Source of the DNA: Liolophura sinensis
Lineage: Eukaryota > Mollusca > Polyplacophora > Chitonida > Chitonidae
Assembly (NCBI RefSeq): GCF_032854445.1
Contig: NC_088297.1
Span: 21,275,127 to 21,339,126 of the forward strand
Reading direction: 5' to 3'
DNA: 64,000 nucleotides
Part shown: piece by piece, positions 5,401 to 63,600 of the stretch
How positions within the stretch are numbered: position 1 is the stretch's first letter
How the letters are laid out: each line of letters opens with the position of its first letter
Position numbers and translations under genes: made by a program
Notes under the pieces: generated by a model
The model's input: only the letters and a program-made list of their open reading frames with translations
The model's database searches: none
Told to the model about the DNA's origin: nothing

Positions 5401-8400
5401 TTGCGTGATAACCCCCTCAGCCAAGGAGGCGCCCTGGCTAGTTTATAAACACAATCAAATCCGAAAGGTAGGAAAGTTGTGGAAACAGTTGAAGTGTTAA
5501 GGGTTTTGCTGATGGGATGGAACTCTCTAATGCTGTGAAAACATCCAATTTTTATTGGGCTGGAGACTGCTTTATACAGGTACATAGACAGTTGTAAACT
5601 GGGGCTGTACCATTGAACTAAACAAAGAAATCAACTTATGGCCATTTTTTAATATGGCTGTAGCAGATTTTTGGAGTAATTGTTTCAAATGAAATTCGTA
5701 GTAAAGCTCATAAGTCAAATGCAGTGTAATTGGAGTAGGGAGAAATTACCATTCCTTTAAGAAAATAAAGCAAACAAGAGTGGGATTCCATGCTTTGCTG
5801 GGTTCAAAAGTTAAATGATTTCAGTAAAGATGTGGTCTTAATATGGCAGGATTCCAACCATTTCATTCACAGTGATAGTGAATCCAGACTGAAATATTGC
5901 TTTTCATGTCATTAAAGAAATCTGGAAGATAGTATTAGCTGTACAATATTCTGATTTACATAGGCAATCCCTCCCACTGCTCTATAATGTGTAATGTTGT
6001 TTGTATTTCAGATTCACAGAGAGCTGAAAAGCCTGGGAGAGCTAGACAACAGTTACATTATGTTCACCTCCGACCATGGCTATCACTTGGGCCAGTTTGG
6101 ACTGGTCAAGGGGAAGGCTATGCCCTATGACTTTGATGTCAGGGTGCCACTGTTCATCCGCGGGCCTGGTGTACCCCCAGGGACTAAGTAAGACCTTAAG
6201 TTCCTACAGGGTCTCACAGACCAGCGTTCTTTAGTAATAAAAACAGGCACTCATCTTGTGATTTCACAGGTGTTTTATTTGAAGACCGTTACCAGCTACC
6301 TGCAGCTTTCTACTTAAGTAAAATTTTGAGCAGGTAGTCATCTACATTGACCACAGCTCCTAATTTATTTCATTTTGTTCTCTGCCAGGTTGCTGGCTAC
6401 TTTTCCACAAATATTACAGAAATATTGATAACCTGCCCAGAACCAATACCATGTCAAAAGTTTAAAATGATCAGGGGCCATTTCCACCAAGCCATTTCTG
6501 ACTAAAGTCAAAATTAAAAATCTGCCCTCAGTGCTTAGTTTTTGGTGCTGAAAGTTTAAATTTTGACACTTTGTCTTCGGGTAACATTAATGAGATGGTC
6601 AAAATTTTAATTTATAGCTCCAACACCTCAAATTCAGAAGTCAGAAATGGCTTAGTGGAATCATACACCGTAGCCTTCCCAAGCCCATAGACAGCTTTGT
6701 TATTATTCACTCAGACTTTTCTTAGTGACTTTTAAAATCTTGAGGGACGTAAATTTTTAGTCAGATTGATACACTTTGCTACTATAGGTGAGATATAAAA
6801 TGTTTGAGACTCTCTAGTTATGTACAGCCATAAAATTTGGCATTTCTTTATTTTCAGATTGAAAAACCTGGTTGCCAATATTGACCTGGCTCCGACGATT
6901 TTGGACATGGCTGGGGTGGAAATCCCTGACCACATGGACGGAAAGTCCATCCTCAAACTATTGACCAAACCAGAAGCCCCCAGGTAAACTAAATAGGTGA
7001 CCTATTGTGACCACATCAGTGTTACTCCAAAACCGATAAGCTAGGGTCAATACCGGTATCCTCAAACCACTGACCAAACCAGAAGTCACCAGGTAAACTA
7101 TGGTGGTCTACAGTGACCACACCAGTATCAGGTAAAACCACATGTATGGTCTGTGTTGACAACAGATGAATTACTTTATTGACCACATCAATACCAGAGA
7201 TCAAATTATTGCACAGGATAAAATGTGAACAGATATTAAAGTAATGCTCTTGTCAAACTGATTGAGCTAACTGGAGCTCAGCAGGTATGTTACATCTATA
7301 TGGTGGCCCTTTCTGATTACATGTATATTGTACTTCTTTATAAAAGTTTCTTATCCAACTGGTTGACCAAACTAGTGGTCAGCATATATGCTATGGTGGT
7401 TCAATCTGACTACATGTACATTGTGCATCAGTATTAAAGTCCCTTGTCCAACTGGTTGACCAATGTAGAGATCAGCAGGTATGCTATGGTGGTCCAGGCT
7501 GACTACATGTAGATTGTACTTCTGTATTAAAGTCGCTCTTGTCCCACTGGTTGACCAAACTAGCGGTCAGTGGGTATGCTCTAATGGTCCAGGCTGACTA
7601 CATGTACATTCTACATCAGTATTAAAGTCTCTCTTGTCCAACTGGTTGACCAAACTAGAGGTCAGCAGGTATGCTGTGGTGGTCCAGGCTGACTAAATGT
7701 ACATTCTACATCTGTGTTAAAGTCACTCTTGTCCAACTGGTTGACCAAACTAGAGGTCAGTGGGTATGCTCTAATGGTCAAGGCTGACTACATGTACATT
7801 GTTCAATCAGAATTAAAGTTAGGGTGTTCTCCAGATGACTGACCAAACGAGTGGTTAACAGATACATATATACTATGGTGTTCCAGCTTGACTTTGGAAA
7901 TGGAAATTCCCGGCAGACATTTGTCGTATTTTTGACATCAAACTTTGCTGTTTGATAAATGCGTGTTCACATGCAAAACATTTGTGAAAATAACACACGC
8001 GTAAACCCTTTTTTCTTTCAGAAATGGGTTCAAGCTGAATCGTTTTAAGAAGGGCTGGAGAGACAGTGTCCTTTTGACCAGAGGGTGAGTGTGACTGTAA
8101 CGTGGCCTTAACAGATCAGCATTCAAATCTGATTCAAAATACATGTACACCCAGTTTTAGCTTGCCTGTACTCATACTCTTAGCTTGTGTCCTACACCGA
8201 GCGTCGACATTCAGTGAGAGGGAAAGATGAAGAGGGGGGGGGGGGGGAGGGATTTTAGAAAGTATTTTATGTACGTTGTATTGAACTCAGGTTTTAGATA
8301 CATGTGGAGTACAATAACACAAGGTGGGCACCTGCATATTATTTACGATAAAGTACAAAATTCACCAGTGAAGTGATTTGTGTATTAGGACCAATGTTAA

Positions 8401-60600: not shown

Positions 60601-63600
60601 GGTCTGTGTAGCCAATGTGGGTGACGTCATGGTAACGGTACAGCTCGCCTGGTTTGGTCGTCTCGCAATTTCCTCCCGCTTCTGACGCCAAATCCACAAT
60701 GACTGAACCTGGCTTCATCGACTCCACCATTGCCTGATGAATCATGGGTAATAAATTAAGTGGATTAGAATTTGTGTAGTCATGGCATCCTCAGCAGAGA
60801 TGTTCCAAACAAAAAAAAAAAAAACTCTCCCCATGTGAGATAAATAAAAACATTCACATTTATTCAAAAGGAAAATTTCCACAAACTTTCCAAATAATTA
60901 ATATTTCTACATGTATGTGAACTATTTATCAATTGTAAAATTTTTAACATAACACCAAAAAAATTACAAGTTTAATACTTGTCTACAATTACTGCATTAC
61001 ATTTTGTCAAAATTATAAAAAAATGTGCCTTAGACCAAACTACCCTTCCAAATCCGTGCAATTTTAGTATACATTATTTTAGAAAATTTGCTCTCAAAGT
61101 TCAAAACTCTCGTGAGTTCCATGAAAGGAATTCCCACACTGACCTTGATGAAAAGATCATGGCTGGTTTCCAACACTGATCTTTGTGGTAAGTTTAGGTG
61201 CTGGTTCCCACACCTTTGTGATAAGTTCAGGGGGCGATTTCCACACTGACCTTTGTGATAAGTTTAGGTGCTGGTTTCCCACACCGACCTTTGTGATAAG
61301 TTTAGGTGCTGGTTTCCCACACTGGCCTTTGTGATAAGTTTAGGTGCTGGTTTCCCACACCGACCTTTGTGATAAGTTTAGGTGCTGGTTTCCCACACTG
61401 GCCTTTGTGATAAGTTAAGGTGCCAGTTTCCCACACTGACCTTTGCAATAAATTTAGGTGCTGGTTTCCCACAGTGACCTTTGTAATAAGTTTAGGTGTC
61501 GGTTTCCCACAGTGACCTTTGTAATAAGTTTAGGTGCCGATTTCCCACACTGACCTTTGTAATAAGTTTAGGTGCTGGTTTCCCAGGGATCAAGGCTGTA
61601 GTAATGATGATGTCCACTTCCTTGGCCTGTTTGGCAAACAGGGCCATTTCTGCCTCGATGAACTCCTTGGACATTTCCTTAGCATAACCACCAGTACCTT
61701 CTCCAGATTCCTGAGCAAGCAAGTCAGAAAATTTATTTACATTCCATTCTAAATATGCAAAACATGGATCAAGCTTGTTTTCAAATCTGTACACACAATT
61801 TCATCAAAATCATGAAAATTGGACAATAATTTAAGCAGTTTTTGCATAAAAACCAATGATCAAACATGTCTACGCTAAACCTCTACACATGTCAGGCTGT
61901 TTTTTTTTTTTTTATTTTCAGTTGATCCGAGGTATGACAAAGGGAAGCTGCGCTGCACTGAACATTAACCTTTATCAAATTCGGAGCACTAATTGCATGG
62001 AAACTGTGACAGTGTATATGAGTGAGCAGACTATTTTAATATTCCTTGCTTGTCGGAAAAGTGCAGGAGAAGAATTGGAAATACACATCTTTGTTCACAA
62101 CTTGTTCGGGAAAGGGGGTTGGGCATGCCACTGTGGTTTAATATCAATGATACATCTTATGTGCAATGCTTTTTAATGAACAACATGTCTTATTCTCCTT
62201 GCCTTAAAAACTTCATAACACTTTGTCTGCTGGAAGTGTGTTTTTTTTTTTTTTTTTGCCTTGAGAAACATGAGAGAACAGAAACTCAAGAATATTTCAC
62301 TTGTACAGTAGTGACTGACATCAAGGTGTTAGGAATCTGGGCAGATCCCAGGGAAAAGCCACAACCATTCGCACGCTGCAAACCAATACACATACGACTG
62401 CATAGGAAGCCAGTAAAAACCGGACTTGAACTCACAGAGACTGCATTAGTGACAGGCTCCTGGGCCATTGTGTCTCGCTAGCACTCTAACAACTAGGGAA
62501 AAGAGTAACCCATACATGTACTAAGCTTAAAACTAAAACCACAAGTTAAGATTTGTAAAAAAGGAAAACACCCATAAAAATCGAAGTAGGTATCACTAAA
62601 TAGACCACTTAAAACTCTGCATAAAAATACATTCATTTTTTTAGATTTTTGCAAAAAGAGGCAGACAAACATTTTAATGCTAAGGTGGGCTATATAGACA
62701 ATACTATCAGAGGAACTCTGACATCACAAGGTTTCCAAAAAAATCTGAAAATACAAATAAACATATTTTTGTGCACAGTTTTCAGTTGTCCATTACATGC
62801 ACCTTACTTCATATTTTAGCTTTCTTTTACATTAAGCTAGGCTTAAGATTGTTTTCCCATCCTGGGGTCAGGCAACGCTTAGCTGTGGTAACACATGTCT
62901 TATTAGGTTTTCTGTGTTTTAATATGCACGGAGCTCCGAGAGAAAAAAGTTACACAATTGAATGGTATGCATCATGCACAATAACCTCAATTTTTAGCTC
63001 AGAATCTGTTATCTCAGAAGTCAAGACATTTTTAAATCGACATTCATAAAATGTAAAGGTTGGATGCCAAAACAGGATTCACAATACAGGGTGTCCCAGA
63101 AGCCATGCAACATCCTGATTTTCATTTTTTTTTCTGTTCTTCAGATTTAATACTGATTCTAAATTTTTTTTCTCTCTTTCAGAGTCAATTATGACTAATA
63201 CACTAACAGTACAAGAAAGAGCTGAATTAGTTTTTATGTTTGGAAGAGATGGGGCAACACACCGCTCTGTAGCTCAAGCATTCAACCTCAAGCTAGATGG
63301 TGCTTGAGGTTAATATACACCCTGTATATTAAAACTTCAGTTGACAATTCATTGAAAAAAAACACATTATTAAAAATGGAACTATTTTATTGACCTTCTA
63401 AAGTAATTTAGTCTTGAAATGAAAAGTGTAAATAATCTGTCCAACTTGTTAGGGCCGCCATGTACAACGGATACATGTATGATATTCAACATGCTACATA
63501 CAGTGAAGTTGCTGGCATTAATTTACCCACTAACCTCAACCTCAACACTGAGAAACTCAGCTCCAAAGGACTCCACTTGTTCCTTCACAGCAGCCCTTGT

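What the first reader, a model, noticed from the sequence alone, without database searches (positions are those of the whole stretch)
6858..61710. Recurrent seeding of intronic tandem arrays by exon edges with their splice sites
At least seven introns in two unrelated genes hold arrays whose unit contains the adjacent exon's end plus its splice site. The Sulf arrays are at 6984-7870, 9165-10540, 18384-19400 and 20618-20768; the Nnt arrays are at 50649-51260, 52320-53262 and 61170-61554. Five copy donors and two copy acceptors. Units range from 38 to 134 bp and are unrelated to each other, so this is a repeated process and not one spreading element. I see none in the AKR gene. Possible mechanisms include local re-replication or slippage at exon/intron borders, splicing-linked DNA breaks, or selection that removes duplications reaching deeper into exons. 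I know of no named class that fits; novelty is inference.
Basis: partly seen in the sequence, partly recalled or inferred. Interest (0 to 1): 0.75.

Follow-up and report, generated by a model that had tools for sequence, protein, structure and literature searches.

The report
Exon-edge tandem repeats in mollusc introns
Several introns here hold tandem repeats that copied the neighbouring exon's end together with its splice signal; this is a real but already named kind of repeat ("mirage", described in lancelets), and in other introns sampled from the same genome it occurs about as often as randomly placed duplications would produce.

Summary
Two parts of the interpretation fail. First, a named class exists: "mirages", tandem duplications of exon/intron boundaries in amphioxus genes. 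This genome is a mollusc by inference (hemocyanin domains). Second, exon edges are not clearly favoured. In 163 other introns of this genome, chosen without regard to repeats, tandem arrays make up about 24% of bases and 12 introns hold an edge array. Edge arrays are 11 of 48 against 8.4 expected from uniformly placed duplications (P 0.18), or 6.9 with a milder correction (P 0.055). Array starts just outside and just inside a junction are equal, 11 and 10. The window is rich (6 of 12 against 1.4), but it generated the hypothesis. Decoy splice sites are kept like other positions. Best reading: ordinary tandem duplication that sometimes straddles a junction and is tolerated because the outer copy keeps the true splice site. 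A modest junction bias, up to about 2.8-fold, is not excluded.

The parts
6949..7819 (+). Sulf intron array with donor (first intron base 6984) and 23-35 exonic bases in the unit; unit about 95 bp, diverged copies
9173..10525 (+). Sulf intron array with donor (9183) and 10-12 exonic bases; unit about 43 bp, about 30 copies
18326..19485 (+). Sulf intron array with donor (18384) and about 56 exonic bases; main unit about 112 bp
20620..20800 (+). Two-copy duplication with the Sulf acceptor (last intron base 20768) and 32 exonic bases; unit about 92 bp
50616..51272 (-). Nnt intron array with acceptor (last intron base 50649 on the minus strand) and 33 exonic bases; unit 131-134 bp
61131..61585 (-). 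Nnt intron array with donor (first intron base 61554 on the minus strand) and about 31 exonic bases; unit 38 bp, about 12 copies
52320..53262 (-). Claimed seventh array at Nnt donor 53262; only 52888-53035 is a clear array, and its link to the exon edge is weak

Best explanation
These are mirage-type minisatellites. A short tandem duplication arises anywhere in or beside an intron and sometimes straddles a splice junction. It is tolerated because the copy next to the exon body (first donor, last acceptor) keeps the authentic splice site in its proper context, so all extra copies are simply intron. The array then grows by slippage or unequal exchange, as intronic minisatellites do. No mechanism aimed at exon edges is needed: a genome whose sampled introns are about a quarter tandem array produces edge arrays at roughly the observed rate. 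Shown: anatomy, rate near random placement in the sample, no detectable purging or protection of decoy sites, and one unit found only at its own locus. Inferred: that only the outer site is spliced, and the slippage or unequal-exchange step.
For: Independent sample: 163 introns (111 + 35 + 17) of genes hit by myosin, kinesin, dynein, tRNA-synthetase, ABC, SNF2 and E1-E2 ATPase models, chosen by protein-family hits only. 48 arrays by self-match with TRF unit lengths, 11 at an edge, 8.37 expected (P 0.18); 62 arrays by TRF, 11 at an edge, 8.81 expected (P 0.24). Local control free of intron length: 11 array starts within one unit outside a junction against 10 within one unit inside (a few arrays count at both ends). 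Four Poisson checks reject, for the sample, the window's self-match ratio of 6/1.38 taken as exact (P below 1e-4 each). Splice dinucleotides in decoy copies are kept in 187 of 196 copies over 8 arrays, mean rank percentile 0.58 among the unit's dinucleotides, Wilcoxon P 0.55. Part of the 9183 array matches only its own locus. The same anatomy is published in amphioxus.
Against: A moderate excess is not excluded: ratios 1.25-1.59, with 95% intervals from 0.62-2.23 to 0.79-2.84. Less conservative choices give nominal significance. Subtracting only the array's own growth gives P 0.055 and 0.063. Shorter self-match units give P 0.024 and 0.0044. Present-day intron lengths give P 0.003 with TRF arrays and below 0.0001 with self-match arrays; I set that null aside because the array itself lengthens the intron. 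With short self-match units sample 2 alone (4 of 11, P 0.019) and sample 3 alone (3 of 5, P 0.022) lean upward; with TRF arrays they give P 0.31 and 0.11; sample 1 does not (4 of 32, P 0.61; TRF 5 of 40, P 0.69). Window plus sample pooled gives 17 of 60 against 9.75, P 0.006, or 13 of 75 TRF arrays against 9.86, P 0.16, and includes the hypothesis-generating window. The window's TRF-only ratio (2 against 1.05) is not excluded by the sample. Microhomology at young duplications was not evident.
Confidence: 0.76

Rival explanations
1. Junction-biased mutagenesis: transcription- or splicing-linked breaks, R-loops or re-replication make tandem duplications start preferentially at exon/intron borders.
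For: Window 6 of 12 arrays against 1.38 expected, and 6 starts outside against 0 inside; independent sample above expectation under several nulls.
Against: In the sample, array starts just outside and just inside the junction are equal, 11 and 10; 11 against 8.4-8.8 expected under the most conservative null.
Confidence: 0.12
2. A regional or gene-specific effect: the Sulf-Nnt stretch has an elevated rate of boundary-spanning duplication (for example open chromatin or germline expression), while the genome at large does not.
For: 5 of 26 introns with an edge array in the window against 12 of 163 in the sample, Fisher P 0.064.
Against: The window was selected because it looked unusual; array density is similar (about 21% of intron bases in the window, 24% in the sample, self-match arrays).
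Confidence: 0.1
3. Retained for function: arrays of decoy donors or acceptors regulate splicing or supply alternative exon ends.
For: Many copies keep an intact site scoring as high as the real one, e.g. in an SNF2-family gene 56 of 57 junction copies keep GT and 46 score at least as high.
Against: Sites are not better kept than the rest of the unit. None of the unit lengths measured for the six secure window arrays (95, 43, 112, 92, 131 or 134, 38) is a multiple of three, so use of one neighbouring decoy would shift the frame; in the sample 3 of 12 edge arrays have a multiple of three (30, 39, 54), as chance would give.
Confidence: 0.04
4. Assembly artefact: repeats falsely expanded or placed at exon edges.
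For: No reads could be examined.
Against: Neighbouring copies in the window's edge arrays match at 83-96%, and sampled cases lie on seven contigs; I would expect artefactual copies to be near-identical.
Confidence: 0.03

Closest known systems
Mirages (mirage minisatellites) of amphioxus: Adh3, globins BflGb6 and BflGb9, TnC, PGBD5 (PMC3087553 and PMC3902484, passages seen; the original NAR 2002 paper is not held)
   Different: Host is a mollusc by inference, not a cephalochordate. No RNA or polymorphism data here. Here a rate (12 of 163 introns) and a placement test are given.
Human internal tandem repeats that reach exon-intron boundaries in segmental duplications (PMC2812944, passages seen)
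   Same: Minisatellite-like expansion (about 30-bp units), some at exon-intron boundaries, discussed with the formation of novel introns.
   Different: Repeats in primate paralogues that change exon or intron structure, about half in coding sequence; not intron arrays seeded by the exon edge.
Intron gain by tandem genomic duplication (PMC4974935, listing with start of abstract only)
   Same: Tandem duplication inside a gene linked to splice-competent sequence.
   Different: Creates a new intron; here an existing intron is lengthened and no new intron is seen.

Membership tests
Mirage minisatellites | Tandem repeat unit spans an exon/intron boundary (exon edge plus splice site) | tested here: met
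   6 of 7 claimed arrays; the seventh inconclusive
Mirage minisatellites | Minisatellite-size units that differ between loci | tested here: met
   Units 38-134 bp; part of one array searched genome-wide matches only its own locus, the others compared by eye only
Mirage minisatellites | Both 5' and 3' boundaries can be duplicated | tested here: met
   Window 4 donors and 2 acceptors secure; sample 8 donors and 4 acceptors of 163 each
Mirage minisatellites | Regular splicing is not disturbed | not testable with these tools
   No RNA data; gene models were built around the outer site and inner sites were not compared as alternatives
Mirage minisatellites | Length instability between haplotypes or in soma | not testable with these tools
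   One assembly, no reads
   163 introns: 11 observed, 6.9-8.8 expected, P 0.055-0.24, lower P with shorter units or present-day intron lengths; starts 11 outside and 10 inside

The most novel reading that the evidence does not exclude
Exon/intron borders are modest hotspots (about 1.5- to 2.5-fold) for the birth of tandem duplications in this mollusc, by a transcription- or splicing-linked process shared with cephalochordates, so that roughly one intron in fourteen carries a mirage, providing natural arrays of tens of decoy splice sites.
Probability: 0.17. Interest if true: 0.6.

Novelty: new member of a known kind. Interest (0 to 1): 0.33.

Why it matters
As far as the searches here show, it extends mirages beyond lancelets and suggests that they are an ordinary by-product of repeat-rich introns rather than a lineage oddity: 12 of 163 sampled introns (95% interval 3.9-12.5%). 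Some of these introns hold as many as 57 recognisable copies of the splice junction, nearly all with the splice dinucleotide intact: a natural experiment on how the spliceosome chooses among near-identical sites, and possible raw material for intron gain or sliding.

Tried and rejected
Spreading element: no support; part of the 9183 array matches only its own locus (that search skips common words and scored one candidate region). Purging or protection of decoy sites: no signal. An earlier comparison that seemed to show conserved splice cores was biased, because copies were picked by similarity to the junction and exonic parts shorter than 20 bases pulled the outer positions down. Microhomology at young duplications: no consistent excess among 14 young arrays. 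Null using present-day intron length: set aside, because the array itself lengthens the intron. Coverage by distance from the junction was not used as the main test, because array growth inflates interior coverage. AMP-binding hits were not used for introns; E1-E2 ATPase gave two candidate pairs.

Literature: no mollusc case was recognised in the listings; three papers were opened, for passages only. Searches listed 10 of 11 and 12 of 164 papers.

Rows dropped before counts: family hits that did not form adjacent exon pairs (323 hits gave 115 pairs); sample 1, 4 of 115 introns (misfit over 5 residues); sample 2, 2 of 37; sample 3, of 57 looser pairs 8 were not fetched (gaps over 4.2 kb) and 32 of 49 solutions failed the quality rule, leaving 17. 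Not modelled for lack of sure exons: Sulf between about 11.4 and 18.1 kb and after 21.4 kb, the first 2.4 kb of the window, and Nnt between 57.8 and 60.5 kb.

Full report
Observation. The window carries Sulf (plus strand), an aldo-keto reductase gene (plus) and Nnt (minus). Gene names come from tblastn with recalled human proteins; all five genome hits of PF02233 (PNTB) fall in the Nnt part of the window. 26 introns were resolved by reading frame and splice consensus. TRF lists 56 rows in the window. Reading the sequence, a self-match pipeline and a copy count around each junction confirm six of the seven claimed arrays as containing the neighbouring exon edge and its splice site: four donors and two acceptors. 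The seventh, at Nnt donor 53262, is too decayed: junction copies do not exceed shuffled sequence, and its similarity to the nearby array is P 0.016, or 0.096 against the whole intron. The AKR gene (4 introns) has none, as stated.

Where it is. The host genome is 609 Mb in 632 contigs. Eight hits of PF14830 (Haemocyan_bet_s), which I recall as a domain of mollusc hemocyanins, lie in one cluster of about 11 kb, so I infer a mollusc, not a lancelet. The species was not identified.

Named class. [quoted passage not shown] PMC3902484 (passages) adds PGBD5 and cites TnC. The original 2002 paper is not held.

Is the junction favoured? I sampled introns by protein-family hits, blind to repeats: myosin, tRNA synthetase, kinesin and dynein, ABC transporters and SNF2, and further, looser pairs. 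After quality filters 163 introns (151,336 bases) remain; about 24% of their bases are tandem array. 12 of 163 introns carry an edge array by either detector (8 donors, 4 acceptors).

The null I prefer is a seed segment of unit length L dropped uniformly over the intron and its flanks; its chance of spanning a junction is about 2L/(I+L), where I is the intron length before the arrays grew. With TRF unit lengths this gives 8.37 expected and 11 observed of 48 self-match arrays (P 0.18), and 8.81 expected and 11 observed of 62 TRF arrays (P 0.24). Subtracting only each array's own growth gives 6.94 (P 0.055) and 7.03 (P 0.063). A control that needs no intron length compares array starts within about one unit outside and within about one unit inside the junction: 11 and 10 with each detector; a few arrays count at both ends. 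In the window the same control gives 6 and 0 by self-match (P 0.016) and 2 and 2 by TRF.

Results that lean the other way: shorter self-match units give P 0.024 and 0.0044, and present-day intron lengths give P 0.003 (TRF) and below 0.0001 (self-match). With short units samples 2 and 3 alone lean upward (P 0.019; P 0.022), sample 1 does not (P 0.61). Pooling window and sample gives 17 of 60 against 9.75 (P 0.006), or 13 of 75 TRF arrays against 9.86 (P 0.16). The interval on the ratio runs to about 2.8. So a strong bias like the window's self-match ratio (6 against 1.38, taken as exact) is excluded for the sampled genes, while a modest one is not, nor is the window's TRF-only ratio of about 1.9.

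Coverage by distance. In sample 1, 3 of 111 donor and 2 of 111 acceptor junctions are covered by a nearby copy, against 21% of interior bases; coverage is at most 2% in the exon bins beyond 10 bases from the junction. That is what tolerance in introns and removal in exons predicts, but interior coverage is inflated by array growth and far bins come from longer introns, so this is not a fair test of bias by itself.

Decoy sites. Of 11 edge arrays tried, 8 gave at least 3 alignable intronic copies; 187 of 196 copies keep the splice dinucleotide (0.70 to 1.00 by array), and its mid-rank among the dinucleotides of the unit averages 0.58 (Wilcoxon P 0.55). Extreme cases are an SNF2-family gene in L067 with 52-57 donor copies and a myosin-family gene in L046 with 50 acceptor copies. 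The spliceosome must ignore them or their products must be discarded; this needs RNA.

Mechanism. A tandem duplication straddling a junction leaves the exon and its outer splice site intact, so it behaves as an intronic insertion; later growth is ordinary minisatellite turnover. Origin by slippage or unequal exchange is inferred; young duplications showed no consistent microhomology. Part of the 9183 array matches only its own locus.

Verdict. A real, known kind of feature, in a new host group as far as the searches made here show, with the edge-targeting idea not supported beyond a possible modest bias. Interest is moderate, mainly for the frequency estimate and the natural decoy arrays.

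Noticed in passing
window 2219-2409: The Sulf exon appears to change reading frame near 2345-2375: homology runs in one frame up to there and in another after it, suggesting a one-base assembly error or a real frameshift in this haplotype.
   Followed up: partly
L067 (SNF2-family gene, intron of 4786 bases): 52-57 copies of a 39-base unit, nearly all with an intact GT donor, many scoring as high as the real donor.
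   Followed up: partly
L046 (myosin-family gene, intron of 2427 bases): 50 copies of a 32-base unit carrying the acceptor, upstream of the acceptor chosen from the protein-profile match.
   Followed up: partly
sampled introns of G000 (loci L001-L127): Tandem arrays make up about 24% of intron bases in 163 introns of conserved genes, high to my knowledge.
   Followed up: no
window 51490-51625: By eye, sequence resembling a dispersed short element that I recall from mollusc genomes, within an Nnt intron; name and family not tested.
   Followed up: no
G000:C614:2338-3369 (L127): Dynein stalk (PF12777) exons on a 15 kb unplaced contig, perhaps an unplaced haplotype or paralogue.
   Followed up: no
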